Made by a program: the position numbers and the translations under genes. The notes under the pieces were generated by a model that was not told the origin of the DNA, made no database searches, and worked only from the letters and a program-made list of their open reading frames with translations. A DNA stretch of 64,000 nucleotides from Zelonia costaricensis (Eukaryota > Euglenozoa > Kinetoplastea > Trypanosomatida > Trypanosomatidae): positions 1-64,000 of the forward strand of contig JASAOO010003458.1 in the NCBI GenBank assembly GCA_030849075.1. The letters run 5' to 3'. Positions 2,456 through 59,841 of the stretch are shown one piece after another. The first letter of the stretch is position 1; each line of letters begins with the position of its first letter.

Positions 2456-2685
2456 CGTGGGAAGTGCGGCAACCCTTCACCCTCCCCCTGCCACCGGCAC
2501 CCTGCTATCACTGACGCCCGCCCCCCCCGCGTCTCTGGCGTTCGCCATCCCACTCTCGTCACCCTCGTCGTCCGTTCCCCCCCCCCCTCCGCCTTCTCCC
2601 GCTCCCGCCCCGCTCAACCCTCACCGCCGTCCCCCACTTTCATCGCACCCTGCACACACAACCACTTCCTCGTCTTGCCCACTTC

Positions 2686-2687
2686 AG
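2686..2687 (+). other. Candidate trans-splice acceptor of the SEN1-like gene
   Basis: The AG of ACTTCAG is the first good acceptor after the pyrimidine-rich block at about 2560-2680. No ATG lies between it and the chosen start codon at 2765, which supports that start. Confidence 0.55.
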
Positions 2688-2764
2688 CAGCCAACATTGC
2701 CCTGGAGGCGAGACCACAGCAGACCCTGTCCAGCTCCGGCGAAGCGCGCGGGGTCACACACAAC

Positions 2765-5700
2765 ATGGAGCCGGCAACCACGTTCATGTTTGGCTGGCGG
2801 GTGCGCCACAGCAGCGATCCGCGCAGCTGGCCGCAGCTCCCCCAGCCCGCGTCGGCCGCATCTCTCAACGCCGCAGAGCCCGCCGCGCAGGCCGCCACGG
2901 CAGCGCTGCTCGGCGAGTACGTCGCTCAGTGGACGGCGACGCTGCCGGAGGACGGCACAGACGCCGGCGAAGGCAGCGGCGCGGCGCTGCCGTCGGTCGC
3001 CCCGGCGGCAATGCTGAACGCTCTGCTGGTCAGCCTGCCGCCGGCCTCCGAGCCCCCGCCGCCCTCCACGCCCGCGGAGGCGACGAGTGGCTCGAGCTCG
3101 GCCGCTCCGCCCCCGCTGCGGCCCATCACCGCAGGCCTCTGCAGCGCCGACGTGCCTGCCGCGGAAGTGGCGTCCCAGCTGCTGCGGCACAGTCGCTGGC
3201 TTGCAACCGGCACGTCGCATGCCGCCGGCCCCGCTCCGCGCCTCGCCTCGGCGGCCCTCGTCTCTCATGCCTACACGCACGGCCTCGCGCCTGCGTGCGC
3301 AGCTCTCGGGCGGGACGCGGCGGGAGAGAGTCCGACGGGTGGCGCAGCCGTGGTGGCCGCGCTGACGGCGCAGCTGCCGTGGATGCTGCCGCTTGGGCCC
3401 GCGGCGGAGTACCGCGGCGCCCACCTTTTCCTCCTCTTCCACCCGATGCGGGTCGTGCGGGTGTGGGCGCGCGACTCGCTGCTGCGCCTCGTGGGCGCGG
3501 CTGCCACCGGCGCGGACGACAGCCGCGGCGGTGGCGACGTGGTGGTTGCGGCGCTGCTGCGGGTTGCGCTGCAGCTGCTGTGCACGCTGAAGCACCTCTC
3601 GACCCTTCCGGGCCTCGTGAGCTTCCTCGCGGCGCACCCGCGGCCCGCTGGCGATGCAGCGATGGATGCTCGGGGCAGTGGCAACAGTGGTGAGCGCTAC
3701 GTGGTCCAGGAGCGGGTGCACACCTTTGCCGACGGCGTGTTCCACGTCTTCACGATACTCACCGCGTGGGACGCGCAGGTGGCAACGGCCACCACCACAG
3801 CCCCCGAGTCGCTTGTCCCGCTCCTGGGCAGGTGTCGGGCGACGGTGCTGCTGCTGGGCGGTAGCATGGCACTGTACGGCCTGCAGGCGGCGCACAACGG
3901 CATCCGCCGCGCTGTGATGGACGCGTGGCAGGACCACCAGCTGCACCACCCGCTGCAGTCCGCCGCGGCCCGAGTCGACCCGGCCCGCGCCGCGCACGCC
4001 GCCCTGACGCAGCTGCTGATGCCGCTCAACGCGCTGCTCGCCGCGAACCCGCGCATGCCGCGTGCGGGTGCCGTCACTGCCGCCGCGGTGCGCAAGGCCG
4101 TGGCCAAGGCGCTCGTGCACTGCCTACTGGACAATGCGAGCGGCCTCGTCGCGAGTCGAGAGGAGGCGGCCTGGCGGCGGGGTCGGCTGGAGTGGCTGTG
4201 GTCGCTCGCCGCAGCACTGGAGCCGCCCACACCACGTGTCACCGCGCCGCTGCTAGCGGACCCCCTCGAAGGGGCCGCCACCGCCGCCCGCCCGACGTCC
4301 GCGCGTGGGGGCGACAGCGTCGGCGGCTCCAGCGAGGCGCTTGTGTGGGTGCCGGAGCGCAGCGCGGGGTGGGTGCTGCGGCCGCTGCTGAAGAACGCGG
4401 CGCAGCAGCTTCGCTGGACCGACGCGATGGCGACGGCGAAGATGCGACCCGGCTCGGGCCCCGTCAGCGACCCCGCTGACGACGCCGTGCGCCGCCTCGA
4501 TCGGGCCGTCCACGCGCTCTTCTTGTTGCTGGACACCGCCGCAGCAGCCGTGCCGCGGCTGTTGTGCACAACGTACTTCCACGACACCATTGCCGCACAC
4601 GAGTTGGCGCTGCTGACGCTCGCGATTGGTGGCATTATGCACACCCGCACCGCCCACGCGCTGGGCCTGCACCGTCTGCTCGTCATGGCCGACGTACGTG
4701 CCTTTGCGGCGGGTGCGGCGGCGCAGGCGCAGGGGGCCGCCTCAGCCACCGGCGCGCGTGGCGGTGCGGTGGGAGTGCCGACGGTGTGCCTCCAGCGAGT
4801 GTGGCTCACGCTACCCACCCTCCTCTCGCAGATGGCCAAGGCTGGCGCCAGCAGCAGCAACAGCACCAGCCCTCTCGCATCGTCCGAGGTCCTTGTGCAG
4901 CTCTGCGGTACGCTGACGGAGCTGGTCGATGCTGCGGCCGCGCCGTGTGCGCAGTGGCTGCTTGCCTCCGGCGCTGGCCCTGCCATGGCTATGGCCCCGG
5001 CGCCTTTGCAGGAAGTGGTTCAGTGCGCGCTGCGTGGCGTCGCGCAGGCACTGCTGGACCACCACGGGGCACTGCACCGGGTCTGGCTCGGGCTGCCGGC
5101 CACCGCAGCGGAGGCGGCGTGCGTGGCGGCCGCGTCGAGTGCCGCCTCACGCGCCGTGACGCACGAGCGCGCGTTCCTGCGGCTCCTGTTTGCCCTGCGC
5201 CTCTCCGCCAACGCAGAGCTGCGGCGGCTGGGCGAGCGCCTCGCCGCCGTCTTCTGCGTTGGTGTGACGGACACCGTCGGTCGCATGTTGACTGCCGAGG
5301 CGGCGGAGTGGCTCTGGCGAGAAGTTGTGCTTGCGCAGCCCGATGTGTGCCGCCACGCGCCGCTGCTCCCCGTCCACGACGGCGGCGCCGACGCGTCGGC
5401 GGCGGCGGCGCTGTTGGACATGAACGACGCAGGTCTTCTCAGCGCGGCCCGGGCACAGGCGCCGCTCTGGCTGGTGGTTCTCCGGGAGGGGAGCTGGGAT
5501 CAGCGGAGCGCGGAGGAGGTGCAGCGCGCGTGGTGGCTGGCGACGCTGCTCGTGGACGTGGCCGCACTCGACGTGGAAGGGCGCCGCGACCTGGCGGAGC
5601 GAGTTCTCCTCGCGCTACCCACCGCTCCCATGCTGGCTGCGGACGGCCCCGCAGCCGCAGCGCCGTGGGACCCAGACGGGGAAGGGGACGGGCACGGCGA

Positions 5701-8700
5701 GGCGGAGGGGGAGGGGGAGGGGGCCGCGGTGGCAGCGACACAGCGGGACGGGTTGGGTGGAGTGCCGTCTGCCGCCCAGCGGTGCCACGCCGTGGTGCGG
5801 CGCCTCTTCACGTTGATGCTGCACAAGGCGGAGCAGTACCCCCGCGCCAGCCTCGCACGTCTACTCCTGCACATCAGCCACGCCATTCCCCCTGCTGCCG
5901 CCGCACGTGACACGGTCTTCCTGCGCGACACGCAGCCGCTGCTCGTCCGGCTTGGCGCGCGCCAGTCGGAGGTGCAGCAGCGCCTCGCCGCGGATGGTCC
6001 GGCGTGGGTGCGGCGCGGGGTGGCGGCGGCGGGGCAGACGATGCAGGAGTGCCTTGCAGAGCAGGAGCGCCGCTTTCGCCAGTTCGAGGTGGAGGAGGCG
6101 ACGCAGCGGCACGAGGAGGCGACGGCGGCGCAGTCCGCCGCGGTGGCGGAGCGGCTGCGCCAGGGCAACGAGGCACGACGCGTAGCAGAGCTGGCACGGG
6201 AGCGCCACACATCGCAGTCCAGTGCCTCCGCAACCCTCAACCACAGCCGCAGCTCCACAAGCGCCAGCATCGGCGGGCGCACCGCGGACGGCCCACAGGC
6301 AGCCACGCGGCAGCCGCGTCAGCAGCAGCTCACGTTTCCGTGCCGGCCCCTGCACCAGTTCGAGTCCGCACAAGGGCCGTGGTCAGTGACAGCGAGTACA
6401 AGTGCTGAGGCGCACGCGGTGGTTGAGCTCGACGTCGACTCGGACGTGGGTGAGGCCGAGGCGGACGCATCGGTGGCACGGCTGCTGGACCGCATCGCGG
6501 GCTCTGTGGTCCTGCCCACGGCCCCCTCCGCCCCCTCTGCGTCGTCGTCCCGCTCGTCGTCGCCTGACAAGGTGCCGCCGGCCCTGGCGGCGCCCTCTCC
6601 AGCGCGCCCACCCACGCAGCCACGGGCAGCAGTGGCGCCCGCTGCCGCCTCCGCCCCTGCCCCGAGCATTCTTCAGCAGAAACTGCAGGCCATCAACGCG
6701 CGCAACACGCACCGCGTGCACCATGCAGAGCAGCTGCGACAGCTGCAGGACCGGCTGCGGCTGGTCGCGACCAGCACGAACCTCACGCACCTGCAGCCCC
6801 CGCTGATCCACGACATCGTCGGCGCCACCTCGCAGTGCATGGCGACGGAGGTGCCCGTGTTGCCGGAGGTATTCGTGCCCGCGGCTGAGGTGCTGCCGCT
6901 GCTCCACGGAGGCGGTGGTGGTGCCACGGCTGCGGCGACCGGTAACTCTGCCGCCCCGGTGCCGTTCGGTGATGCGGCCGGGGTGTACGCCGTCCGCTTC
7001 GCCCCGCACATCGCTCTTGAGCTGCGCTACGACGTTGTCCGCAGCTTCGAGGAGTTCATGGAGCGGTCCTGCAAGCCGGACACCGCCGGTGGACACGGCA
7101 GCTGCAACGGCTACACCGGCGCGCGGCGTCGCCTGGAGGGAGGGGCGGGACGCAGCGCCCCGGCAGCGGCGCTGGAGGCCCCCGCCACGGAGCTGAAGTG
7201 GACGGAGCTGCTCCCTCTCCACCCAAACGTCCCGTGCACGTGCGTGGCGGTGCAGACGGCAGCGGGTGCGGCGCCAGCCGCGTCGAGGCGGCACAACCTG
7301 CCCATCGCCCTCACCGCACCGGCTGCGCCGCCCCCGCTGGGTGGGGGCAGCAGCCTGCGGATCCGCGTTCAGGCGTGCGCGAACGCGGCAGTGCAGCGGC
7401 ATGAGCGGCAGCAACGGGAGCCCGGCGCGCGGCGCGGTGCAGCTGCGCAGGCGTCCGTTGCACCTTCGACGCAGCCGCCGAGACCGGTGGACACTCTCGT
7501 GCTCAACGCGGCGACGCAAGGTCTTCCGGCGGTGCTGGCCGAGGGGGACGTCGTCGCCGTGTTGCTGCCGCTCCACGCCGTGCTGGCACGCTGGCTGGAG
7601 CGGGAACTCGGCTGCCCGCTCGCCCACTGCACCACCGCGGAGGCGGCGCAGCGTGCGCGAGAACTGGTTCGAACGCTGCCGCGGAGCTGGCAGGTGACGG
7701 GCTGCGCGGTACAGGTGTGCTACGTGGAGTCGATGCTGCCCGGGGAACGGGCGGCGACACTGGTGGCGGCCCCTGCCGTGGTAGAACGCGCCACTCACGG
7801 CCGACACGCCGCGCACCCTCAGCCGCACGTGCCCACGCTGCGCTTCCTTCACGTATTCCGCATGGCCTTTGACACCACCGCGCCGTCCGCCACCTTCTAC
7901 CTCGCCAAGCTCACCTCCCTCAACGCTTCGTTGATGGAGCTGGAGGCGCTGCACTCCATCGACAGCACCCGCTTCGCCGCCACGCTGTACGACCCGCGGC
8001 ACACCGCGCCACAGAGCACCGCCTTCTACGACTGGGCCACGTCGCTGCTCTCCGCCGCAGGCCCGCTGCGTGCGACGCCGCTGCTGCCCGTGCTGCGCGC
8101 GCGGCTGCTGCTCCAGCAGCAGCTGAACGACTGGCAGATCCGCGCGGTCACGGCGGTGCTGTACGCGGTGTGCCCGCGCTGGGACGGCGGGGTGGCGGAG
8201 CAGGTCACGCAGGCCGTGATGCCGCGCGCGCCGGAGGTGCTGATGATCGAGGGCCCACCGGGAACCGGCAAGACCCAGACCATCGGGTCGCTGACGCTGA
8301 ACCTGGTGCACCACCTCAGCCGCGTGCGTGGCACGGCACCCCGCGTGCTGGTGTGCGCGCCGTCGAACTGCGCTGTGGACGAGGCGCTGCTGCGCGTTGT
8401 GCGGCTGCGCAAGCAGCTGAGCGAGGCCGCGGCTGCGGGCGGTGACGGTGCTGGCGTGGCGCAGCGCCCAGCGCAGGCGGTGCTGAGTGGCGGGCTGCTG
8501 CGCATCGGGGTGCGGGACAAGGTCGATGCGGAGGTGCTGGCCCAGCCCGAGGCGGTGTTCTTTGACGACGTTGTGGAAGAGATGCTCGAGAGTAGCAAGG
8601 CGGCCTCCGCCCGCGGTGGACGCGGGGGCGGCGGCGGTGCTGCTGCTGCTGCTGGACGTGGCGGTCGGAGCGGGGGCGGCAGTGACGTTCGCGGCGCGGA

Positions 8701-10099
8701 CAGCGGCAATGCGCGCGCGCGTCAAGTGGCTCGTGCGCAGGCGCTCTCGGGTGCTGTCATGATCTTCTCCACGCTCGGCTCCTTGCACCATGTTTCTCGC
8801 ACGGTGCAGGGCTTCGACTTCGACGTGGTGGTCGTGGATGAGGCCTCGCAGGGGACGGAGCCGGCGGTGTTGCAGGCGATCACGCTGGCCAAGCACAAGT
8901 GCGTGCTCGTGGGCGACTCCCGGCAGCTGCAGCCCACGATTCTGTCGCCGGAGGCGAGTCGCTGCGGTCTGCGCCGCAGCCTGCTGGTGCGGCTGCTCTC
9001 GTGCGGGCACCGCTCCTTCATGCTGCGCACGCAGTATCGCATGCACCCCGACATCGTCGCGTTCCCCAACGCGTACTTCTACAACTCGCAGCTGCTGACC
9101 GACCGAAGTGTGCGCGTGCGCTCTCGCGTCCCCGTCGGCACCGCAGCAGCGCCTCACGCCGCCACAATAGCGCAGCGGCTCGGGCTGAGTCCCCGGTTTG
9201 TCTTCGTGGACGTCGCCAACGCGCAGATGGAGCGGCGCGGTGGCCGCTCGCTGCAGAACCCCCGCGAGGCGGCCGCCGTGGTGGACGTCATGCGACAGCT
9301 GCGCACCTTCTTCGCGATGTCGCTGCCGGAGATGGCGGAGCGGGTTGGGGTGATCACCTTCTACGCGGCGCAGAAGAGCTTGATCATGTCGATGCTGTCG
9401 CGGCAGGAGCGGGAGAGCGGAGTGCAGGTGGCCACGGTGGACAGCTTCCAAGGCAAGGAGAAGCGGATCGTCTTGCTGAGCTGCGTGCGGACGGTGAGTG
9501 CGGCGCAACTGCGACAGGCGGAGCAGCGCACGCGGCGCCGGCCCCGGGACAGCGGCAGCGATGACGGCGGGGGGCCCGGTGAGGACGCAACGGACACCGA
9601 GCCGGTCGTGCTGGAAGAGCGACGAGCGAGCTGGCGTGCAGGCCGCTTCGGGCTCGGCTTCCTGGCTGACTGGCACCGCCTGAACGTGGCCCTGACCCGC
9701 GCGCAGGACCTGTGCATCTGCTTCGGCAGTGCCAGCACGCTGCGCGCGGTTGGCATGGCCGCCCTCACCGTCGCTGCCCCCACGCACTGCTGCACTACAG
9801 CGGACAGCAGTGTAGAGGAGGTGGCGAGGCAGCTGGACGCCGAGGACGAGGACCCGCTGGCGCTGTTCCGCATGCTCGAGCACGCTGAGGCCCGCGACGC
9901 GGCACTGCCGCAGAGCGTCGTCGCCGCAGCGCAAGTGTCATCGCCGCCACGGGCTGACTCCATTGAAGTTGTGGAGGAGCCGCTGCTTCCCACGTCCACC
10001 TCGCGCACTGCGTTTGTGACGTACAACCCCAGGTCGGCGCTCATTAAGGAGCTCACAGCGCGAGCGGTGGCGGCGCAGGCGCAGAGCCGGGCACCCTAA
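2765..10099 (+). CDS. Large SEN1-like superfamily 1 RNA/DNA helicase
   Basis: The product is 2,444 residues, of the size of yeast Sen1 and human senataxin. Residues 1 to about 1330 are an alanine/leucine-rich helical region. A charged Glu/Arg-rich segment and a Ser/Pro-rich linker follow at about 1090-1310. The C-terminal third is the helicase core: Walker A GPPGTGKT (1830-1837), DEAS box (2025-2028), QYRMHP (from 2090), DSFQGKEKR (from 2226) and RLNVALTRA (from 2305). All key catalytic motifs look intact. A Gly/Ala-rich insert (about 1945-1975) sits inside the first RecA-like domain. By family it should unwind RNA or RNA:DNA hybrids in the nucleus. The start at 2765 is the first ATG after the acceptor near 2686; the frame is open further upstream, but through repeat sequence. 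It is the complete tandem paralogue of the fragment at the window start. Confidence 0.9.
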   Translation: MEPATTFMFGWRVRHSSDPRSWPQLPQPASAASLNAAEPAAQAATAALLGEYVAQWTATLPEDGTDAGEGSGAALPSVAPAAMLNALLVSLPPASEPPPPSTPAEATSGSSSAAPPPLRPITAGLCSADVPAAEVASQLLRHSRWLATGTSHAAGPAPRLASAALVSHAYTHGLAPACAALGRDAAGESPTGGAAVVAALTAQLPWMLPLGPAAEYRGAHLFLLFHPMRVVRVWARDSLLRLVGAAATGADDSRGGGDVVVAALLRVALQLLCTLKHLSTLPGLVSFLAAHPRPAGDAAMDARGSGNSGERYVVQERVHTFADGVFHVFTILTAWDAQVATATTTAPESLVPLLGRCRATVLLLGGSMALYGLQAAHNGIRRAVMDAWQDHQLHHPLQSAAARVDPARAAHAALTQLLMPLNALLAANPRMPRAGAVTAAAVRKAVAKALVHCLLDNASGLVASREEAAWRRGRLEWLWSLAAALEPPTPRVTAPLLADPLEGAATAARPTSARGGDSVGGSSEALVWVPERSAGWVLRPLLKNAAQQLRWTDAMATAKMRPGSGPVSDPADDAVRRLDRAVHALFLLLDTAAAAVPRLLCTTYFHDTIAAHELALLTLAIGGIMHTRTAHALGLHRLLVMADVRAFAAGAAAQAQGAASATGARGGAVGVPTVCLQRVWLTLPTLLSQMAKAGASSSNSTSPLASSEVLVQLCGTLTELVDAAAAPCAQWLLASGAGPAMAMAPAPLQEVVQCALRGVAQALLDHHGALHRVWLGLPATAAEAACVAAASSAASRAVTHERAFLRLLFALRLSANAELRRLGERLAAVFCVGVTDTVGRMLTAEAAEWLWREVVLAQPDVCRHAPLLPVHDGGADASAAAALLDMNDAGLLSAARAQAPLWLVVLREGSWDQRSAEEVQRAWWLATLLVDVAALDVEGRRDLAERVLLALPTAPMLAADGPAAAAPWDPDGEGDGHGEAEGEGEGAAVAATQRDGLGGVPSAAQRCHAVVRRLFTLMLHKAEQYPRASLARLLLHISHAIPPAAAARDTVFLRDTQPLLVRLGARQSEVQQRLAADGPAWVRRGVAAAGQTMQECLAEQERRFRQFEVEEATQRHEEATAAQSAAVAERLRQGNEARRVAELARERHTSQSSASATLNHSRSSTSASIGGRTADGPQAATRQPRQQQLTFPCRPLHQFESAQGPWSVTASTSAEAHAVVELDVDSDVGEAEADASVARLLDRIAGSVVLPTAPSAPSASSSRSSSPDKVPPALAAPSPARPPTQPRAAVAPAAASAPAPSILQQKLQAINARNTHRVHHAEQLRQLQDRLRLVATSTNLTHLQPPLIHDIVGATSQCMATEVPVLPEVFVPAAEVLPLLHGGGGGATAAATGNSAAPVPFGDAAGVYAVRFAPHIALELRYDVVRSFEEFMERSCKPDTAGGHGSCNGYTGARRRLEGGAGRSAPAAALEAPATELKWTELLPLHPNVPCTCVAVQTAAGAAPAASRRHNLPIALTAPAAPPPLGGGSSLRIRVQACANAAVQRHERQQREPGARRGAAAQASVAPSTQPPRPVDTLVLNAATQGLPAVLAEGDVVAVLLPLHAVLARWLERELGCPLAHCTTAEAAQRARELVRTLPRSWQVTGCAVQVCYVESMLPGERAATLVAAPAVVERATHGRHAAHPQPHVPTLRFLHVFRMAFDTTAPSATFYLAKLTSLNASLMELEALHSIDSTRFAATLYDPRHTAPQSTAFYDWATSLLSAAGPLRATPLLPVLRARLLLQQQLNDWQIRAVTAVLYAVCPRWDGGVAEQVTQAVMPRAPEVLMIEGPPGTGKTQTIGSLTLNLVHHLSRVRGTAPRVLVCAPSNCAVDEALLRVVRLRKQLSEAAAAGGDGAGVAQRPAQAVLSGGLLRIGVRDKVDAEVLAQPEAVFFDDVVEEMLESSKAASARGGRGGGGGAAAAAGRGGRSGGGSDVRGADSGNARARQVARAQALSGAVMIFSTLGSLHHVSRTVQGFDFDVVVVDEASQGTEPAVLQAITLAKHKCVLVGDSRQLQPTILSPEASRCGLRRSLLVRLLSCGHRSFMLRTQYRMHPDIVAFPNAYFYNSQLLTDRSVRVRSRVPVGTAAAPHAATIAQRLGLSPRFVFVDVANAQMERRGGRSLQNPREAAAVVDVMRQLRTFFAMSLPEMAERVGVITFYAAQKSLIMSMLSRQERESGVQVATVDSFQGKEKRIVLLSCVRTVSAAQLRQAEQRTRRRPRDSGSDDGGGPGEDATDTEPVVLEERRASWRAGRFGLGFLADWHRLNVALTRAQDLCICFGSASTLRAVGMAALTVAAPTHCCTTADSSVEEVARQLDAEDEDPLALFRMLEHAEARDAALPQSVVAAAQVSSPPRADSIEVVEEPLLPTSTSRTAFVTYNPRSALIKELTARAVAAQAQSRAP

Positions 10100-35238: not shown

Positions 35239-36363
35239 ATGCTCCCATTCCCCCGCGCAGCGTACTACGCCCGAATCGGCGCCACGGCGTCGTTGCTGCC
35301 GCAGCTCACGCCCACCCTCGCCACCCGACCCCCGCGCGAGCGCCTGCGGTTCCTGCGCGATCTCATGCTCGCCCACACCACCGCCATCCCGTTCGAGTCG
35401 ATCGACGCGCTGCTGGGCCGGCCCGTGTCGCTCGCACCCGCCGACATCTTCGACAAACTCATCCACGCCCGCCGCGGCGGCTATTGCTTCGAGCAGAACG
35501 CCCTCTTCCACCATGCCATGCTAGACGCCGGCTTCGACGACGTGCGGCGGCTCGCGGCGCGGGTGACGTGGGGCAGCGTGCACACCCCGATGGGCCGCTC
35601 GCACATGCTCAACCTCGTCACCCTGCCGAGTGACGGCGGTGACGCCGCAGCCCCGCCGCAGCAGTGGCTGGTCGACGTCGGCTTCGGCGTCGGCGTGCCG
35701 CGGGCGCCGCTGCTGCTCAGCACGGACGCCCCGCAGCGCACCCTGGCGGGCACCCTGCGCGTGGTGCCGCGCAACGCAGCGGGCGCCGGCCTCTCCGGGG
35801 TGTGGACGGAGTACGCGATGGAGCTGCAGGTGGCCGCGGCGCCGGGGTGGCGCGAGGTGTACCACTTCGACCTCCAGCCGCAGCTGCCGCGCGACTTCCA
35901 CATGATGAACTACGTCATCCAGCGGCAGTCCATCTTCTGCAACAACCTGCAGGGCTCGCGGGCGGAGGGGGTGTGGGTGCCGACCCCTCGCCCCGCTGCA
36001 CCGAGCGGGGCCCCCGAGACGGCGAGCACGTACGTGGCCCGTGGCATGTACACGCTCGTGGCGGGCCGTGACTGCAGCGCCGTGGTGAAGGCGCCGTACC
36101 TGTCTCAGGACGCCGACCTCGTGGCGCTGCCGGCTGTCGGCGGCCTGCTGCAGTCCAGTGTGGCCCACCCGAGCACCCCGGGCGAGCTGTACGACTGGAT
36201 GGTGACGCACCTGCAGCTGGACCTGGCGCAGACGGCCTACCCGCAACACCGCGTCACCCGGGAGGAGTTCGAGGCCGCGGCCCGCGCCAGCCTCGCCGTG
36301 TACGGTGGCAGCACCTACACGCCGCCCGCGTACCTCTGCGACGCGGCCCAGTCAGCGCTGTGA
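35239..36363 (+). CDS. Arylamine N-acetyltransferase, copy 1
   Basis: The product is 374 residues, longer than the usual 270-300 of the NAT family. The N-terminus carries the typical YYARIG motif and PFESIDALLGRP. The signature RRGGYCFEQNALF contains the catalytic Cys83. His122 sits in GRSHMLNLV and Asp146 in WLVDVGFG, so the Cys-His-Asp triad is complete. These enzymes transfer acetyl from acetyl-CoA to aromatic amines, hydrazines or related amine acceptors by a ping-pong mechanism in the cytosol. The physiological substrate here is unknown. The C-terminal 45 or so residues (PGELYDWMVTHLQ and onward) are nearly identical to copy 2 downstream. The start is the first ATG, 70 bases after a (CA)n patch. 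NATs are patchily distributed in protists, so horizontal acquisition is possible but not shown. Confidence 0.9.
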   Translation: MLPFPRAAYYARIGATASLLPQLTPTLATRPPRERLRFLRDLMLAHTTAIPFESIDALLGRPVSLAPADIFDKLIHARRGGYCFEQNALFHHAMLDAGFDDVRRLAARVTWGSVHTPMGRSHMLNLVTLPSDGGDAAAPPQQWLVDVGFGVGVPRAPLLLSTDAPQRTLAGTLRVVPRNAAGAGLSGVWTEYAMELQVAAAPGWREVYHFDLQPQLPRDFHMMNYVIQRQSIFCNNLQGSRAEGVWVPTPRPAAPSGAPETASTYVARGMYTLVAGRDCSAVVKAPYLSQDADLVALPAVGGLLQSSVAHPSTPGELYDWMVTHLQLDLAQTAYPQHRVTREEFEAAARASLAVYGGSTYTPPAYLCDAAQSAL

Positions 36364-37078: not shown

Positions 37079-38218
37079 ATGACGCACTGCCCGTTCCCAC
37101 GCGCGGCCTACTACGCCCGCATCGGCGCGACCGACACGCTGCTGCCCATCGTCCTCGTCCATGAGGCGTCACCGGCGAGCGCGGTGCCCGGTGCCCTCGG
37201 CGTGGAGTTCCTGCGCAATCTTATGCTGGCGCACCTCAGCACGATACCCTTCGAGAACGTCGATGCGCTCCTCGGCCGCCCCATCCTCACGCGGCGCGCC
37301 GACGTCTTCGACAAGCTGATCCACGCCCGTCGCGGCGGCTACTGCCACGAGCAGAACGCGCTGTTGCGGGCGGCCATGATCGATGCCGGCTTCACCCGCA
37401 TCCGCACGCTGGGGGCGCGGGCCGCCATCTCGAGCGAGCCCTCGGAAGTGGGCCGCGTGCACACGATGAACCTCGTCACGGTGCCGTCCCTCACGACGCA
37501 CGGCGAGACGGAGCGGTGGCTGGTAGACGTGGGCACGTCGGCCGGCGTCCCCATGGCGCCGTTGCGGCTGGACTGCACCGCCTCGCAGTTCACCCCCGCT
37601 GGGGAGTTCCGCGTCATCTCGTACGACCTGTGCACGCACGCCGGCATGATGGCGGCCGCGACCCCGGCCGGTGGGCACGACGAGGGCTGGCTCGAGTACG
37701 CGCTGGAGATGTTCACGCGCAGCGGGGTGTGGCGGGCTATTCACCGCTTCGACCTCCAGCCGCAGTACCCGCGCGACGTCTTCGCCATCAACTACATCAC
37801 CCATCAGCTCTCCCCCATTGCCTACTCGCTGCGCGGCTCGCGGACGGTCGTGCAGTGGGCCGCAGCAGGGACACAGGGCGTGCCGCACGGGGTCGGTAGT
37901 GTTGCCTGCGTGCCGCGCGGCGTGTACAGCCTCCTCGCCGCTGACACGACGCGGGTGGCGACGCGCACGCTCAACGCGTACCCCGGCACACGCGACCCTG
38001 TCCCGCCCACCGGGGACCTCGCGCCGGTGCAGCCCAGCGAGGCTCACCCGAGCACCCCGGGCGAGCTGTACGACTGGATGGTGACGCACCTGCAGGTGGA
38101 CCTGGCGCAGACAGCCTACCCGCAACACCGCGTCACCCGGGAGGAGTTCGAGGCCGCGGCCCGCGCGCGCCTCGTCGTGTTCGGGGGGGCGTCGTGGCAG
38201 GGCCCGAGCCACCTGTGA
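37079..38218 (+). CDS. Arylamine N-acetyltransferase, copy 2
   Basis: The product is 379 residues and is a tandem paralogue of the gene at 35239. YYARIGATDTLLP and IPFENVDALLGRP match the family N-terminus. Catalytic residues are Cys89 in RRGGYCHEQN, His128 in GRVHTMNLV and Asp150 in WLVDVGTS. The triad is intact, but residues around it differ: CHEQN replaces CFEQN, and the loop after Asp reads TSAGVPM rather than FGVGVPR. That loop lines the acceptor pocket in known NATs, so altered substrate preference is a reasonable inference. The 3' end (38044-38160) is almost identical in DNA to copy 1. The start is the ATG at 37079; upstream open frame runs through the spacer and lacks family similarity. 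Confidence 0.9.
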   Translation: MTHCPFPRAAYYARIGATDTLLPIVLVHEASPASAVPGALGVEFLRNLMLAHLSTIPFENVDALLGRPILTRRADVFDKLIHARRGGYCHEQNALLRAAMIDAGFTRIRTLGARAAISSEPSEVGRVHTMNLVTVPSLTTHGETERWLVDVGTSAGVPMAPLRLDCTASQFTPAGEFRVISYDLCTHAGMMAAATPAGGHDEGWLEYALEMFTRSGVWRAIHRFDLQPQYPRDVFAINYITHQLSPIAYSLRGSRTVVQWAAAGTQGVPHGVGSVACVPRGVYSLLAADTTRVATRTLNAYPGTRDPVPPTGDLAPVQPSEAHPSTPGELYDWMVTHLQVDLAQTAYPQHRVTREEFEAAARARLVVFGGASWQGPSHL

Positions 38219-50873: not shown

Positions 50874-51490
50874 GCCGCCTTGAACGGCGGACTGGACGCT
50901 CAGTGAGCCAGGCCCCTCCACCCCCACCCTGCCTCCCCCCTTCCTATCGGTACGCAGACACTTATGCGCATCTGTTGGCATGTGTCTGCGTGTGTGTGTG
51001 TGTGTGTGTATGTGCGAGTGGTTAGAGGTGAAGCAGCGAGGGAGCGGGGGGTGGCTCTTGTAAAAACATGGCGAGTAGGGGAGGAGGGGGGGTCTGCGGT
51101 GCGCGGTGTTGGCGAGCAGCGTGCAGCAGCCGGCACCCACACCACCGCCCCAGTTGCCCTCCCCCTCGCCGTGCGCACCCTCGCTCCACCGATCGACTCC
51201 ATGTCACGTGGTCGGGCACATGAACACACACACACATACACAAACACGAAATCGCACGCACCCCATTTTCCTTTGTTCGACCTTTTAGAAGATGCAACGC
51301 CTCGGCGTCGGCTTGTCCTCCTCCTCCGTGCATGTGCGCCCACCCGCGTTGTGGCCGCTACGCCCGCCCCCCCCTCCCCGCCTCCGCCTGGGCACCCCTC
51401 GCCCTCTCCCCCCACGTAGATCTACGTCTCTTCACTAGTTGAAGGAAGCAGGCGTGGGGGGGGGCCTCTCTCCACGTGTGTCTGATCGTC

Positions 51491-51491
<1 letters not shown>

Positions 51492-51535
<44 letters not shown>
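51492..51535 (+). repeat. (TG)n microsatellite
   Basis: An uninterrupted TG run of more than 40 bases, one of the longest perfect dinucleotide runs in the window. Confidence 0.95.
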
Positions 51536-51539
<4 letters not shown>

Positions 51540-51540
51540 T

Positions 51541-51603
51541 ACCCCTTTTCTCTTTCCACTCTCCATCCTTCATGACTTCTCGCTCCCTCTCTGTCTCGCA
51601 CAC

Positions 51604-51610
<7 letters not shown>
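51541..51610 (+). repeat. Duplicated spacer block, copy 1
   Basis: It begins ACCCCTTTTCTCTTTCC and ends TCTCGCACACCCGTGTG. The same block recurs at 52051-52120 with about six substitutions and no indels. Each copy is preceded by a (TG)n run ending in GCGAT and followed by another (TG)n run. Confidence 0.9.
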
Positions 51611-51644
<34 letters not shown>

Positions 51645-52050
51645 AGCTGAATTCGAGGTGCGTGACGCGGTGGGAGGTGGAGGGGTCGGTAGAGGCGCTG
51701 GGTGTGTTGAGTGCCGCGCCGCCGTCAGCATCACCCTCTCCCCTCCCCCCGTCTCCACTCTCCTGCTCGCCCTCCTCCGTCCAACTGCGTGTCCTGCGTT
51801 GCGGGGCCCCTCCCTCCGCTGAGCACCGCCACCACCACCTGACGCCCCCTTCACCGCTCGTGTGTGTGTGTGTGTGTGTGTGTGTGCATCGCTCCGCTGC
51901 GCCGCTTGTGCCGTCTTGGTCATTGTATTTCTCTAGCTCTCACTCCCCCACCCTCCCACACGCTTCCACGATTTGCCCTACCTGCCTGTCTACCTACCTG
52001 AGCGTGTGTGTACGTGTGTGCGTGTGTGTGTGTGTGTGTGTGTGCGCGAT

Positions 52051-52120
52051 ACCCCTTTTCTCTTTCCATTCTCCATTCTCCATGAGTTCTCTCTCCCTCT
52101 CTGTCTCGCACACCCGTGTG
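52051..52120 (+). repeat. Duplicated spacer block, copy 2
   Basis: It matches 51541-51610 across its whole length with only scattered substitutions, and has the same flanking (TG)n arrangement. This suggests a tandem duplication of a (TG)n-bounded unit. Confidence 0.9.
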
Positions 52121-52838
52121 TGTGTGTGTGTGTGTGTGATTGCTCCACCTCACGCCTCCCGCCCCCTTCCCCTCACCAAGCCACGCCATCAAACGAGAAG
52201 GGGGCGGCGGTGTGCGCCCTTGACACACACACACAGCCCCCCCTCCTCGGGCGAGGCCCCCATCAGCACGGGGCCGCAAAAACCGAACGCAACAGCAACG
52301 CCCCGAGACGCGCGTGAACTCTGACGTCGTGGCGAGCCTCTCCACTTCTCCTTCTCCTCCCCCTTCCCAGCGGGCTGCTCGCAGGGAGTTGTGGTGGGCG
52401 GAGGGAGGGGGGTGCAGGCAGGGCACTCACTGCCTGTGCTGCCCCGTGCGCCGCGCCTGCACCGATGCGCGCCACGCGGGCCGCGAGGGAGGTCGTCCCG
52501 CAACTGCCACCTCATCCCGCATGCGGCACACCCCGCACCCCAGGCCCAGAACTTAAGCGAAGAGACGACGGCAACGCCACTGCCGCGTCGCGTGCGCCTG
52601 CGTTCACCGCAGCGGCACAACAGAGGCCGCCACAACAACTCCCCTCCCCTCACACGCAACCACCCCCCTCTCCCTCACATCCCCAGCACCGCCACCGCCA
52701 CCACCACCAGCACCGACAACCTCCGGCCCCCCCCCTTCCTCAGACTCAGAGACAAGAGAACCTCGGGCCTGCACGTACAGACACAGGCGCCGACTCAGCC
52801 CTCCTCCATCCCGTTCCTCTTCCCTCGTCACCAGCGCC

Positions 52839-55411: not shown

Positions 55412-57208
55412 ATGGCGACGGCAGGCGAGGAGGACATCGCCGACTTCACCCTCGATGACGAGAACGTCATCGACACGGACATGGGGCTGGCCAAGCAGGA
55501 CCTCAGCAAGATCAACCTGGACGAGCTCAACGTCGACACCTTCGAGGTCATGTCGCGCCAGGCCACGATCAACGTGGGCACCATCGGCCACGTCGCGCAC
55601 GGCAAGTCCACCGTCGTCAAGGCGCTCAGCGGCGTCAAGACGCAGAAGTTCCACCGCGAGGCGGTCATGAACATCACCATCCACCTCGGCTACGCCAACG
55701 CGAAGGTGTACCAGTGCGGGTCCTGCCCGCGCCCCGTGTGCTACCAGACCTACCCCTCCTCGCAGCCCGACAGCACGCCGTGCCCGAACTGCGGCGAGAC
55801 CATGACGCTGAAGCGCCACTTCTCCTTCGTCGACTGCCCGGGCCACGACGTGCTCATGGCCACCATGCTCAACGGCGCCGCCATCATGGACGCGGCACTG
55901 CTGCTCATCGCCGCCAACGAGGTGTTCCCGCAGCCGCAGACACTCGAGCACCTCGCCGCGGCGGAGATGATCGGGGTCACGTCGCTGCTCGTGCTGCAGA
56001 ACAAGGTGGACCTCGTCAGCAAGGTGCACGCAGCGGCACAGCACAGCATCATCCACCACTACCTCGCCTCCAAGACGGGCTACCCAAACGCGCCGGTCAT
56101 CCCGATCTGCGCCCAGCAGCACCTCAACCTGCAGTACCTGCTCGACTACCTCGTCCGCACGCCACTCCCGCGGCGCCAGCTGCGCGCCACGCCGCACCTG
56201 AACGTCCTCCGGTCCTTTGACGTGTCGCTGCCGGGTCCGGCCGGCGACGGGGCCGCGGCGCTGAAGGGCGGCGTCGTCGGCGGCACGGTGGCGGCGGGCG
56301 TGCTGTGCGTCGGGGACGAGATCGAGATTGTTCCTGGTCTGCTCGTGCTGCGCCGCCGGGACGGCGTGCTGCCGCGCCGCGCGGATGTGCTGTCGGGGCA
56401 GGAGGTGGCCTACATCGCGGCCCCGCCGCCGGGGGAGCTCTACGCCGTCCCCCTGCGCACCACCGTCACACGTCTGCAGGCCGAGAACAACGTGCTGCAG
56501 TACGCCGTTCCGGGCGGCCTCATCGCGATTGGCACGACGCTGGACCCGTCGCTGACGCGGCAGAACAAGCTGCGTGGGCAGGTGGTGCGTGTCGTGCGGC
56601 GCGGGCCGCTGTGGGGGCGTATGGGCGCGAGCGAGGACGCACACGCCGATGACGTCGCGAGCGGCGCGTCGTCCCTGCCGCCCGTGGAGGGGGCACCGCT
56701 GGACGACGACGGCGCGGTGCAGGAGCGCGAGGCTTGTCTGACGGGCATGCAGGTGTACCAGGAGGTCGTCATCCAGTTCTTCTTGCTGCGCGAGATCATC
56801 GGACTGTCGGCGCCACCACAGCAGTCGACGCGGCACGGCCAGCGCGGCCTCGCAGATGGCGCTGGAGGTGGCGGGGCGTACCGCGTGCACCCCGACCACG
56901 CCACCGCCGCGGTGCACCGGCGGGTGGCGCCGCTGCGAGAAGAGGATAGCATCATCCTCAGCGTCGGCACGCTCACGACGGCAGCGACGGTGCTGCGTAC
57001 GTCGCGGCGCGCGGGCCGCGCGATATGCCGACTTGAGAGCCCGCTGTCCGCCAACCCGCCGAACCAGCGCATCGTGCTGGCCCGCTACGTGGACCGCAAG
57101 GTGCGCGTGATTGGGTGGGGCACGATCCGCAAAGGTATTCCCGTGAAGCTCCTGCCGGAGGAGGGAGGCGTCGGAGGTGGTGGCGGCGGCGCGCCACGGC
57201 AGTTGTGA
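55412..57208 (+). CDS. Diverged eIF2-gamma paralogue (translational GTPase)
   Basis: The product is 598 residues, about 120 longer than the orthodox copy at 58402. Residues 1-183 are nearly identical to that copy: P-loop GHVAHGKST (59-67), the C-x2-C zinc knuckle (CGSC...CPNC) and DCPGHD. Beyond that it diverges, with NKVD still present (about 197-200) but G5 reading CAQ instead of SAQ. Domains II and III, which in eIF2 bind tRNA and partner subunits, carry long low-complexity insertions (about 405-440 and 472-505). Recognisable blocks remain, such as AENNVLQYAVPGG. GTP binding is therefore probably retained. Whether it delivers initiator tRNA is doubtful. DNA at 55427-55954 is identical to the copy downstream. 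The ATG lies downstream of an AG-rich acceptor region. Confidence 0.85.
   Translation: MATAGEEDIADFTLDDENVIDTDMGLAKQDLSKINLDELNVDTFEVMSRQATINVGTIGHVAHGKSTVVKALSGVKTQKFHREAVMNITIHLGYANAKVYQCGSCPRPVCYQTYPSSQPDSTPCPNCGETMTLKRHFSFVDCPGHDVLMATMLNGAAIMDAALLLIAANEVFPQPQTLEHLAAAEMIGVTSLLVLQNKVDLVSKVHAAAQHSIIHHYLASKTGYPNAPVIPICAQQHLNLQYLLDYLVRTPLPRRQLRATPHLNVLRSFDVSLPGPAGDGAAALKGGVVGGTVAAGVLCVGDEIEIVPGLLVLRRRDGVLPRRADVLSGQEVAYIAAPPPGELYAVPLRTTVTRLQAENNVLQYAVPGGLIAIGTTLDPSLTRQNKLRGQVVRVVRRGPLWGRMGASEDAHADDVASGASSLPPVEGAPLDDDGAVQEREACLTGMQVYQEVVIQFFLLREIIGLSAPPQQSTRHGQRGLADGAGGGGAYRVHPDHATAAVHRRVAPLREEDSIILSVGTLTTAATVLRTSRRAGRAICRLESPLSANPPNQRIVLARYVDRKVRVIGWGTIRKGIPVKLLPEEGGVGGGGGGAPRQL
55427..55954 (+). 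repeat. 528-bp tract with no mismatch to 58408-58935
   Basis: I compared the two stretches line by line and found no difference over 528 bases. Identity starts in the codons after the start and ends abruptly after CTCGAGCACCTC. Beyond that, codons and amino acids diverge at once. Confidence 0.92.
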
Positions 57209-58401
57209 GCTCGGCCATGCTGCCAGGGTGCGAGACGAGAGCGGAGGGGGAAAGGAGGCAGAGGCGGAGGCGCCGCTGTCTCCCGATACTGCTAATGTTG
57301 CCCGTGTGTGTGTGTTGCGTACGTCAGTGCATGTGTGTGCGTGTGTGCTTGTGTATGTGCCGACTTCACCGCGTTCGAGAGTACGCAGCTGGTGGGGGGG
57401 TGGCGGCGAGTCATGCGGAGGGAGGAGGGGGGGAGGAGGCAGACGGGCATGGATGCAGCAGCAGTGCGAGTGTGTTCGCGACAGTCCCCTGGCACCACGG
57501 CTCAACGGGGTGCCGGCAAGCCTCACGCACACGACCGCGCACGCTGCGCTATCGTGTACGCCGATCACCTAGTCCCCCGCTTCGACCTCTTCTCGCTCGC
57601 CCTTGTGCGGTCACGCGTTCGCATCGTGGCGCGAGGCGGGCACGTCGACGTCGGTGTGACTCCGTGGCCCCCTTGTGCCCCTCTACGCTCCCTTTGCCCC
57701 CCCCCACCACCACCACTGTTGCTGCTGCTGCTGCATCGGCGTCATCACAGCCACCGTCATCGCCACGTCCCCACTTCGCGAAGCGGAAAAGTGAAGTGCA
57801 CGTGGCCCAGTCTCGCTGCCGTAGGGACACGCCAAGTGTGACCTCCCCGCGCTGCGGGCGTGCGGCAGGCGTCGCACGGCTTCGGCGCCTGCCCGACCAC
57901 TGCGTGTGTGCAGCGCCGCGTGGGCGAGAGGCGCCATCAGGTGCGAGCTTGTGCGACGGTCGAAGCGGGGTGGGCCTTGTCCTTCCAGTGTGTGGAGGGG
58001 GAGGGGGACGCCGCCCCACCCCACTCCCCTCCGCGTGTGTGCGACGCCACTCTGTATTCCGTCAGGAGGTATCTGAGGCTCCCCACCCCCTCCATCCCTT
58101 TGCCTTGTGTCATCTCAGCCTTTGAGTTCTGCGGGTTGTGCCTCCGACAGCCACCGACAGCCACCGCACCCCCCTCCCTCTTTCCAGCTGATGCGCCACT
58201 CCCTCTCCTCCTTCACGTACTCACGCACACTCGCGAACGCTGTCTTGGTCCTGTCCTCTGCGCAGTCTCCTGTTGGTAGCCAAGTGTCACTCGCACACAC
58301 ACGCCCTCCCCTCTTCACCCCTCGTCTCACCACTCCTTCACGGGACACCTCCATCCTCTAACTCTCCCCCTCCCCCCACTCCTCTTCGACGTTCAGCAAC
58401 C
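57209..58401 (+). other. Intergenic spacer between the eIF2-gamma genes
   Basis: TG-rich sequence (57304-57360) follows the stop. A short CA run (58296-58305) and a C-rich block (58362-58380) come before the acceptor at 58395-58396. The spacer does not share the identity seen in the coding tract. No gene is seen. Confidence 0.7.
58395..58396 (+). other. Candidate trans-splice acceptor of eIF2-gamma
   Basis: The AG of GACGTTCAG ends a C/T-rich stretch (58362-58394) and leaves 5 bases before the ATG at 58402. Confidence 0.65.
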
Positions 58402-59841
58402 ATGGCGGAGGAGGACATCGCCGACTTCACCCTCGATGACGAGAACGTCATCGACACGGACATGGGGCTGGCCAAGCAGGACCTCAGCAAGATCAACCTG
58501 GACGAGCTCAACGTCGACACCTTCGAGGTCATGTCGCGCCAGGCCACGATCAACGTGGGCACCATCGGCCACGTCGCGCACGGCAAGTCCACCGTCGTCA
58601 AGGCGCTCAGCGGCGTCAAGACGCAGAAGTTCCACCGCGAGGCGGTCATGAACATCACCATCCACCTCGGCTACGCCAACGCGAAGGTGTACCAGTGCGG
58701 GTCCTGCCCGCGCCCCGTGTGCTACCAGACCTACCCCTCCTCGCAGCCCGACAGCACGCCGTGCCCGAACTGCGGCGAGACCATGACGCTGAAGCGCCAC
58801 TTCTCCTTCGTCGACTGCCCGGGCCACGACGTGCTCATGGCCACCATGCTCAACGGCGCCGCCATCATGGACGCGGCACTGCTGCTCATCGCCGCCAACG
58901 AGGTGTTCCCGCAGCCGCAGACACTCGAGCACCTCAAGGCGGTGGAGATCATGAAACTGCGCCACCTCATCGTGCTGCAGAACAAGATCGACCTCGTCGG
59001 CGAGGTGAAGGCGCACGACCAGTACCGACGCATCCGCGACTACATCGACAGCATCGCCCTGAGCGCCCCCATCGTGCCCATCTCCGCCCAGCTCAAGCGC
59101 AACGTCGACTACCTGCTCGAGTACCTGCTGCACATCCCGCTGCCGGTGCGCCACCTCAAGGCGCCGGCCCGCATGACGGTGGTGCGCTCCTTCGACATCA
59201 ACAAGCCGGGTGAGGGCGACATCGAGAACCTGAAGGGCGGCGTGGCGGGTGGCACGGTGACGCAGGGTGTGATCAAGGTCGGCCAGGTGGTGGAGATCCG
59301 ACCCGGCCTCGTCCGCTCGCGCAGCACCAACGAGCAGGGCGGCCGCTTCACGTACAGCCCGCTCAAGACCCGCACCGTGTCCCTCAAGGCCGAGAACAAC
59401 GTGCTGCAGTACGCCATCCCCGGCGGCCTCATCGCCGTCGGCACGACGCTCGACCCCACCCTGACGCGCCAGGACAAGATGGTGGGCCACATGCTGGGCG
59501 AGGAGGGCACGATGCCGGAGGTGTACTGCGAGATCGAGGTGCAGTACAACCTCTTCTCCGAGATGGTCGGCGCCAAGTCGAAGGACGGCAAGTCCACCGC
59601 CAAGCGCGTGCAGAAGCTCAACGTGCTGGAGTCGCTGCAGATCAACGTTGGCACGCTGACGGCGGGTGCGACGGTGCTCAGCATCACGCAGGACCCCGAG
59701 ATCGCGAAGCTCGAGCTCGTCACGCCGGTGTGCTGCTCCACGGGGGAGCAGGTCGCCATCTCGCGTATGGTGGACAAGACGTTCCGCCTCATCGGCTGGG
59801 GCACGATCCGCCGTGGCGTCGCCATGAAGCAGAGCAGCTAA
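58402..59841 (+). CDS. Translation initiation factor eIF2 gamma subunit
   Basis: The product is 479 residues, matching the usual 470 or so. eIF2-gamma is the GTPase of the ternary complex that brings initiator Met-tRNA to the 40S subunit, together with eIF2-alpha and -beta. Visible elements are P-loop GHVAHGKST (56-64), zinc knuckle C99-x2-C102 and C121-x2-C124, and G3 DCPGHD (138-143). G4 NKID is at 194-197 and G5 SAQ at 228-230. Domains II and III follow with AENNVLQYAIPGGL and the C-terminal FRLIGWGTIRRGV. All motifs are intact. The start is five bases after a strong acceptor. The first half is identical in DNA to the diverged copy at 55412. Confidence 0.96.
   Translation: MAEEDIADFTLDDENVIDTDMGLAKQDLSKINLDELNVDTFEVMSRQATINVGTIGHVAHGKSTVVKALSGVKTQKFHREAVMNITIHLGYANAKVYQCGSCPRPVCYQTYPSSQPDSTPCPNCGETMTLKRHFSFVDCPGHDVLMATMLNGAAIMDAALLLIAANEVFPQPQTLEHLKAVEIMKLRHLIVLQNKIDLVGEVKAHDQYRRIRDYIDSIALSAPIVPISAQLKRNVDYLLEYLLHIPLPVRHLKAPARMTVVRSFDINKPGEGDIENLKGGVAGGTVTQGVIKVGQVVEIRPGLVRSRSTNEQGGRFTYSPLKTRTVSLKAENNVLQYAIPGGLIAVGTTLDPTLTRQDKMVGHMLGEEGTMPEVYCEIEVQYNLFSEMVGAKSKDGKSTAKRVQKLNVLESLQINVGTLTAGATVLSITQDPEIAKLELVTPVCCSTGEQVAISRMVDKTFRLIGWGTIRRGVAMKQSS
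58408..58935 (+). repeat. 528-bp tract with no mismatch to 55427-55954
   Basis: Partner of the identical tract in the upstream paralogue; it covers codons 3-178, including G1, the zinc knuckle and G3. Confidence 0.92.

What the first reader, a model, noticed from the sequence alone, without database searches (positions are those of the whole stretch)
55412..59841. eIF2-gamma pair with 528-bp identical tract and an abrupt end
The two tandem genes share 528 bases with no mismatch (55427-55954 and 58408-58935), then diverge at once, including synonymous sites. The shared part covers P-loop, zinc knuckle and DCPGHD, and stops before NKxD. A plain recent duplication would not give perfect identity next to heavily diverged sequence, so gene conversion of the 5' half is the natural explanation.
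Basis: partly seen in the sequence, partly recalled or inferred. Interest (0 to 1): 0.8.

Follow-up and report, generated by a model that had tools for sequence, protein, structure and literature searches.

The report
Twin translation genes sharing recopied front
In a trypanosomatid genome, two neighbouring genes for the translation-start GTPase eIF2-gamma share an identical 528-base front while the rest of their protein sequences match at under half of the positions; proteins of related parasites show the same split, most likely because gene conversion keeps recopying the front part in each lineage.

Summary
Downstream 137 of 301 aligned residues and 54 of 95 fourfold sites match. Gene 2 (58402-59841) is canonical eIF2-gamma. 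Gene 1 (55412-57208, 598 aa) is an old, diverged paralogue: orthologues occur in Leishmania, Leptomonas, Novymonas, Phytomonas and Trypanosoma, relatives in Bodo saltans and unnamed bodonid-like sources, often named "EIF-2B gamma". Trees conflict. Back parts separate paralogues from canonical genes (96/97; 64/93 with two rows out), while in the front a paralogue clade is rejected (p-AU 8e-39). The front is identical between the two genes in T. theileri (155/155), between L. infantum and L. donovani (174/174) and in an unnamed bodonid-like pair (166/166), but not in a fifth pair (130/173); between distant lineages it is 70-79% identical. Purifying selection or recent duplication cannot explain that. 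Recurrent gene conversion with a near-constant right edge (about codons 168-179) can. Direction (canonical to paralogue) and function (variant eIF2-gamma) are inferred. Long reads and DNA of other species could not be examined.

The parts
55412..57208 (+). Gene 1: diverged eIF2-gamma paralogue (598 aa), relatives often named 'EIF-2B gamma'
   Evidence: Pfam GTP_EFTU and eIF2_C; orthologues; predicted eIF2-gamma fold
58402..59841 (+). Gene 2: canonical eIF2-gamma (479 aa)
   Evidence: 94% identical to the Leishmania major eIF2 subunit; best match 7ase_5 among solved structures
55427..55954 (+). Identical tract, copy in gene 1 (codons 6-181)
   Evidence: 528/528 bases
58408..58935 (+). Identical tract, copy in gene 2 (codons 3-178)
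   Evidence: 528/528 bases; two matches in the assembly
55418..55426 (+). Nine bases in gene 1 only, between the shared ATGGCG and the tract
   Evidence: sequence shown
55955..57205 (+). Diverged part of gene 1: late G domain with NKVD, domains II and III, low-complexity insert
58936..59838 (+). Diverged part of gene 2 (canonical)
56478..56506 (+). 29-base identical patch in gene 1, possible second small conversion tract (codes AENNVLQYA, as in the canonical genes of the window and L. major, in none of 17 other paralogue rows)
   Evidence: longest identical run after the tract, reached in 10 of 5000 codon permutations
59387..59415 (+). Matching 29-base patch in gene 2
57209..58401 (+). Intergenic stretch; its end is not alike to the 5' flank of gene 1 at the tract's offset
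   Evidence: ungapped offset scan; the 302-aa ORF at 57217-58125 has no Pfam match

Best explanation
Gene 1 is an old, diverged paralogue of the neighbouring canonical eIF2-gamma gene 2, and its first part (codons 6-181) was most likely overwritten recently by gene conversion, the latest round of a process that seems to have recurred in several kinetoplastid lineages. Shown here: base-perfect identity over 528 bases with abrupt edges; the paralogue's presence across trypanosomatids; conflicting trees for the front and back parts; protein identity of the front in three other pairs (one of them cross-species, L. infantum against L. donovani; one from an unnamed source). Inferred: conversion as the molecular event; the donor (canonical gene); and the reason for the near-constant right edge, namely that the back part has diverged too far to pair for recombination, and/or that conversions reaching further are removed by selection because the paralogue's back part has its own job. 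Functional reading, inferred: both proteins keep the same nucleotide-switch front (P-loop, switch I, zinc knuckle, switch II), so they would answer to the same GTPase-activating and exchange machinery, while the paralogue's altered late G domain, domain II (with an extra loop) and domain III would give a variant eIF2-gamma with different partner or tRNA handling.
Against: DNA of the other species was not available, so recurrence rests on protein sequences. One of the five pairs examined, the JGI pair, does not show a homogenised front (130/173; longest run codons 124-178). A single duplication before bodonids and trypanosomatids split is favoured but not secured: separate duplications are not rejected (p-AU 0.14), and support drops to 64/93 when two rows are left out. 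The two ENA genes lie on different contigs, so their coming from one organism is itself inferred. The Leishmania comparison crosses species and shares no private residue. The Porcisia 3' end may be a deletion fusion. No expression or functional data for the paralogue were found.
Confidence: 0.86

Rival explanations
1. Assembly artefact: two similar but not identical 5' parts were collapsed by the assembler and one consensus was written into both genes.
For: The genome is held as 755 contigs; the tract may exceed read length (not known). Some gene models elsewhere begin inside or shortly after this block on short contigs (Leptomonas seymouri P0009, contig 2477; P0004, contig 2050), as expected where assemblers stumble over the repeat.
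Against: Both copies have their own flanks in one contig. The same front identity is seen between separate Leishmania assemblies, and in T. theileri with both genes on contigs of the same listed length. A collapse needs near-identity to begin with, which would still be concerted evolution; only the exactness of 528/528 is at risk.
Confidence: 0.07
2. Strong purifying selection on the GTPase front, without recombination.
For: 81 of 81 front columns near-invariant in 18 canonical rows are kept in at least 10 of 11 trypanosomatid paralogues.
Against: Selection on the protein does not hold 87 of 87 fourfold sites identical. The front is only 70-79% identical between distant lineages but 99-100% within four of five pairs. 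Lineage-specific residues are shared by both genes in three of five pairs.
Confidence: 0.01
3. Recent partial duplication: the front of gene 2 was copied and fused to another gene's back part to make gene 1.
For: Identical front with unlike 5' flanks.
Against: Gene 1's back part is itself eIF2-gamma and has orthologues with the same architecture in several genera. Repeated independent capture at the same codon range in each lineage would be needed.
Confidence: 0.02
4. Reciprocal or unequal crossing-over between misaligned copies (cycles of fusion and re-duplication) rather than non-reciprocal conversion homogenised the front.
For: The Porcisia gene has a paralogue body and a canonical 3' end (79 of 84 residues as in L. 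major canonical, 33 of 84 as in the L. infantum paralogue), which a deletion between the tandem genes would also make.
Against: A single crossover exchanges everything on one side, so the 5' flanks would travel with the front. The window's 5' flanks are not alike, so two exchanges close together are needed, which is what conversion means in practice.
Confidence: 0.04

Closest known systems
mtrA-1/mtrA-2 of methanogens (Wang et al. 2015, PMC4632066; abstract and outline seen)
   Same: Ancient duplicates in two lineages in which one domain is homogenised by long-lasting gene conversion while another part stays distinct.
   Different: Archaeal operon genes, where the distinct part is an acquired transmembrane domain. 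Here both parts are homologous eIF2-gamma and the boundary lies inside one fold (within a helix of the G domain in the model). Tandem genes of a eukaryote.
Concerted evolution of tandem gene arrays in T. brucei, including the chimaeric phosphoglycerate kinase array (Jackson 2007, PMC1855330; abstract, sections 11 and 13 and search passages seen)
   Same: Trypanosomatid tandem duplicates, gene conversion, parts of a gene escaping homogenisation.
   Different: A survey of T. brucei arrays; a word-start search of its text gave 0 for 'initiation factor' and 'eIF2'. Here one copy is an old diverged paralogue and the homogenised part has about the same edge in distant genera.
Canonical eIF2-gamma / aIF2-gamma
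   Same: Three-domain fold, GTPase motifs, C-terminal domain, zinc-knuckle cysteines.
   Different: Trypanosomatid paralogues do not keep 6 of 23 late-G, 9 of 45 domain II and 11 of 26 domain III residues near-invariant in canonical rows (domain borders approximate, set by me) and have an extra domain II loop and a low-complexity insert.
Prokaryotic long-lasting recurrent concerted evolution (Wang and Chen 2018, PMC6053082; abstract and outline seen)
   Same: Recurrent homogenisation kept up over very long times in key pathway genes.
   Different: Survey of prokaryotes; the abstract does not speak of homogenisation limited to part of a gene.

Membership tests
eIF2-gamma family (gene 1) | EF-Tu-type GTPase domain plus eIF2-gamma C-terminal domain | tested here: met
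   PF00009 86.4 bits (cut-off 26.5) and PF09173 43 bits (cut-off 22)
eIF2-gamma family (gene 1) | Overall eIF2-gamma fold | tested here: met
eIF2-gamma family (gene 1) | G1, G3 and G4 motifs intact | tested here: met
   GHVAHGKST, DCPGH and NKVD present in the translation; motif names recalled
eIF2-gamma family (gene 1) | Binds initiator tRNA and eIF2-alpha/eIF2-beta | not testable with these tools
   Needs biochemistry. One PF07541 (eIF2-alpha) and two PF01873 matches in the assembly; that the two are eIF2-beta and eIF5 is my reading
eIF2B-gamma (the name given in several trypanosomatid records) | Nucleotidyltransferase-like and hexapeptide-repeat domains (recalled) | tested here: not met
   Only GTP_EFTU, eIF2_C and a GTPase family below its cut-off (PF01926) match gene 1 at E up to 0.001
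Gene-conversion (concerted) pair | Paralogues within a genome more alike than orthologues between species in the affected part | tested here: met
   Four of five pairs; the JGI pair is the exception and the Leishmania pair crosses species
Gene-conversion (concerted) pair | Sharp boundary with conflicting phylogenies on either side | tested here: met
Gene-conversion (concerted) pair | Synonymous sites homogenised too | tested here: met
   87/87 fourfold sites in the window; DNA of other species not available
Gene-conversion (concerted) pair | Identity holds in single long reads | not testable with these tools
   no reads held
Long-lasting, domain-limited concerted evolution (mtrA type) | Homogenisation repeated independently in lineages that diverged after the duplication | tested here: met
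   At protein level in the window, Leishmania and T. theileri; the ENA pair agrees, but the shared age of bodonid and trypanosomatid paralogues is not secured

The most novel reading that the evidence does not exclude
Kinetoplastids run two eIF2-gamma GTPases with one shared, continually recopied switch half and two different output halves: a 'same switch, different cargo' pair in which gene conversion itself keeps the paralogue interchangeable with canonical eIF2-gamma towards its regulators, while the back half directs a second, so far undescribed initiation route.
Probability: 0.22. Interest if true: 0.87.

Novelty: new variant of a known kind. Interest (0 to 1): 0.62.

Why it matters
It points to a second eIF2-gamma-type protein, found in several trypanosomatid genera and often labelled as an eIF2B subunit, in a group that depends on translational control. 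It also offers a eukaryotic case of long-lasting gene conversion confined to part of a gene, with an edge inside one protein fold, so the question of what stops homogenisation (lack of homology or selection) becomes testable by comparing many species. In practice, where the fronts are identical, peptides or probes from the first 178 residues cannot tell the two proteins apart, so existing data on Leishmania eIF2-gamma may mix them.

Tried and rejected
Purifying selection alone, a recent plain or partial duplication, and a pure assembly artefact were each held against the data and set aside (see rivals). A claim that the paralogue protein was already detected was considered and dropped. PMC7365475 (passages seen) lists LINJ_09_1130 as 'EIF-2B gamma' in vesicle proteomes, but PMC5895769 (abstract, outline and passages seen) uses LinJ.09.1130 for eIF2-gamma and pairs it with LmjF.09.1070, which PMC4513851 (passages seen) gives as 52.5 kDa, the canonical size; shared front peptides would be ambiguous anyway. 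A search for related DNA in viral contigs found no relative. Paper searches for a description of the paralogue (listings; passages of five of the papers) showed none in what I saw; one search listed 15 of 23 papers, and only open-licence PMC papers are held. I could not name the organism: the back-part tree places gene 1 with Novymonas esmeraldas (95/95). No row named T. brucei, T. equiperdum, T. congolense or T. conorhini was a paralogue among the 120 rows listed (of 227) or (of 6556, from 7994 scored candidates), which suggests loss but does not show it. Most canonical sequences of Leishmaniinae are probably hidden in one 90% cluster (P0121, 25 members), so few within-species pairs could be formed.

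Rows dropped before counts: the trees drew on 36 rows (18 paralogue, 18 canonical) that I picked from the listings. P0004, P0009, P0013, P0147, P0232 and P0233 (partial) were left out; T. grayi P0012/P0147 overlap too little in the block to count as a pair. P0040 and P0231 were left out of the front tree (34 rows), P0143 out of the back tree (35 rows). The last part of the Porcisia row was masked in the back trees because it is a mosaic. P0127 comes from a transcriptome record of another organism (name cut in the listing) and was used as a canonical row all the same.
Full report
What is in the window. The window lies in a 28.67-Mb, 755-contig assembly. Gene 1 spans 55412-57208 and codes for 598 residues (its open frame starts further upstream, at 54608); gene 2 spans 58402-59841 and codes for 479 residues. 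The stretches 55427-55954 and 58408-58935 agree at 528 of 528 bases, with a mismatch directly outside on both sides, and a search of the assembly with the tract found these two places only. Both genes start ATGGCG; gene 1 then has nine bases of its own, so the block reaches almost to the start codon. The 5' flanks are not alike in the ungapped offset scan.

Is it more than chance or constraint? Inside the tract all 176 codons and 87 of 87 fourfold sites are the same. After it 137 of 301 aligned residues and 54 of 95 fourfold sites match, with NG86 dN 0.53 and dS 0.61. Fisher's test on fourfold sites gives p = 2e-14, and placing about 352 downstream differences outside the tract by chance has a probability of about 1e-70. 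The tract has 119 synonymous sites without a change, so by the rule of three dS is under about 0.025. GC3 is 0.98 in the tract, 0.97 in the rest of gene 2 and 0.90 in the rest of gene 1, a weak hint that the tract came from gene 2.

How old is gene 1? Searching with its diverged part found relatives in Leishmania, Novymonas, Leptomonas, Porcisia, Phytomonas, Trypanosoma grayi and T. theileri, in Bodo saltans and in unnamed sources (227 proteins at E up to 0.001, 120 listed). A profile search added Strigomonas and more unnamed rows (6556 proteins, 120 listed). In a tree of the back part (35 rows), the 13 trypanosomatid paralogues group at 100/100, and all 18 paralogues lie on one side of a branch at 96/97. 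I call the unnamed rows bodonid-like because P0015 pairs with Bodo saltans at 100/100 and the others join them at 91/84. The deeper point is less safe: with P0015 and P0040 left out the support for the paralogue side falls to 64/93, and separate duplications in trypanosomatids and bodonids are not rejected (p-AU 0.14). Gene 1 is therefore at least as old as the sampled trypanosomatids, and perhaps older.

Front and back tell different histories. In the front tree (34 rows, codons 1-174) the window pair (100/98) and the T. theileri pair (100/97) group by species and the Leishmania and ENA pairs are identical sets, while the JGI pair is unresolved; holding the paralogues together is rejected with p-AU 8e-39, two sets of identical rows left free. 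In the back tree, pairing is rejected for the window (p-AU 2e-58), T. theileri (2e-5) and the ENA pair (4e-4). Front identities are 172/174 in the window, 155/155 in T. theileri, 166/166 in the ENA pair, and 174/174 for the L. infantum paralogue against the L. donovani canonical protein (and against L. major). In the fifth pair examined, from a JGI source, identity is only 130/173, with its longest run at codons 124-178. The front is not simply frozen by selection: between distant lineages it is 70-79% identical. Three of the five pairs share residues seen in no other row (M21, V106 and V168 in the window; V101 and R168 in T. theileri; 14 in the ENA pair); the Leishmania and JGI sets share none.

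The boundary. The identical run ends at codon 178 in the window, Leishmania and T. theileri pairs, and at 174 in the ENA pair, whose codons 175-195 still agree at 19 of 21. Position 168 varies and is shared within pairs, while 169-178 are nearly invariant in both genes, so protein data place the edge only between about codons 168 and 179 outside the window; the window's DNA puts it at 55954. In the model of gene 1 the edge (codon 181) lies inside a helix, 175-187, so it is not a domain border. It separates P-loop, switch I, zinc knuckle and DCPGH from NKxD and domains II and III. Jackson's survey of T. brucei arrays argues that less conserved regions may escape conversion after duplication (PMC1855330, section 11). 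That accounts for the edge without special machinery. Selection for a distinct back part is the alternative, and the two can reinforce each other.

Other signs of exchange. A 29-base identical patch at 56478-56506 / 59387-59415 codes AENNVLQYA in gene 1, as in the canonical genes of the window and L. major and in none of the 17 other paralogue rows; 10 of 5000 codon permutations reach such a run. In Porcisia the paralogue's last 84 aligned residues are canonical (79 of 84 as in L. major canonical, 33 of 84 as in the L. infantum paralogue), either a 3' conversion or a fusion by deletion. Both suggest flow from the canonical gene into the paralogue. In T. theileri, Phytomonas EM1 and the JGI source the two genes are listed with contigs of the same length, which fits linkage of the pair. 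Several gene models in other species start inside or shortly after the block (P0004, P0009, P0013, P0147, P0232), as expected where a near-identical repeat breaks assemblies; this is a hint, not proof, of DNA identity there.

How it most likely works. Shown: homogenised front, diverged back, old paralogue. Inferred: repeated non-reciprocal copying of the front from gene 2 into gene 1, limited on the left by unlike flanks and on the right by diverged coding sequence. Inferred function: in at least 10 of 11 trypanosomatid paralogues all 81 front columns near-invariant in 18 canonical rows are kept, against 17 of 23 in the late G domain, 36 of 45 in domain II and 15 of 26 in domain III; the four bodonid-like paralogues keep 77 of 81, 19 of 23, 34 of 45 and 20 of 26 (borders approximate). 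The paralogue would therefore bind GTP and answer to the same regulators but differ in its output half, where an extra domain II loop is shared by the trypanosomatid rows aligned and absent from P0015. One eIF2-alpha match and two PF01873 matches (read here as eIF2-beta and eIF5) were found, so any variant complex would have to share those subunits.

What is known. No description of this paralogue turned up in what I saw of the searches made, which cover open-licence PMC papers only. A 2012 review of trypanosomatid initiation (PMC3399392, passages seen) has the word 'gamma' once, in a reference on another factor. The closest precedent is mtrA-1/mtrA-2 of methanogens, where gene conversion homogenised one domain over a very long time (PMC4632066, abstract and outline). 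The nearest within trypanosomatids is the phosphoglycerate kinase chimaera cited by Jackson. The mechanism is thus known; the case, its breadth, and an edge inside one fold appear new.

Verdict. Main gaps: no reads, no DNA of other species, direction and function inferred.

Noticed in passing
35239-36363 and 37079-38218: Tandem N-acetyltransferase (PF00797) genes, much diverged, share a 157-base block at 94% identity (36149-36305 / 38028-38184) with abrupt edges: a second conversion-like tract in this window.
   Followed up: partly
1365-1706 / 2119-2454, 1224-1379 / 1899-2054, 293-372 / 9650-9729, 1-209 / 9331-9537: Repeated blocks (81-99% identical) around and within a large AAA_11/AAA_12-domain gene at 2285-10099; one block edge is beside an N at 2118.
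   Followed up: no
51494-51628 and 52004-52138: 135-base repeat at 93% identity rich in TG runs, in a TG-repeat-rich stretch from about 50960 to 52050.
   Followed up: no
57217-58125: 302-aa ORF between the two eIF2-gamma genes without a Pfam match and of odd composition; probably not a gene.
   Followed up: partly
Porcisia hertigi protein P0010, C-terminal 84 residues: Paralogue body with a canonical eIF2-gamma 3' end: a 3' conversion or a fusion by deletion.
   Followed up: partly
Database names of P0001, P0003, P0005, P0007, P0009, P0012, P0014: The paralogue is named EIF-2B gamma subunit in public records although gene 1 of the window, its relative, matches eIF2-gamma families.
   Followed up: yes
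PMC13067578, section 17 (passage): In Leishmania eIF4G pull-downs EIF2-gamma showed much greater intensity than EIF2-alpha and -beta; peptides of a paralogue with an identical front could contribute, which I could not test.
   Followed up: no
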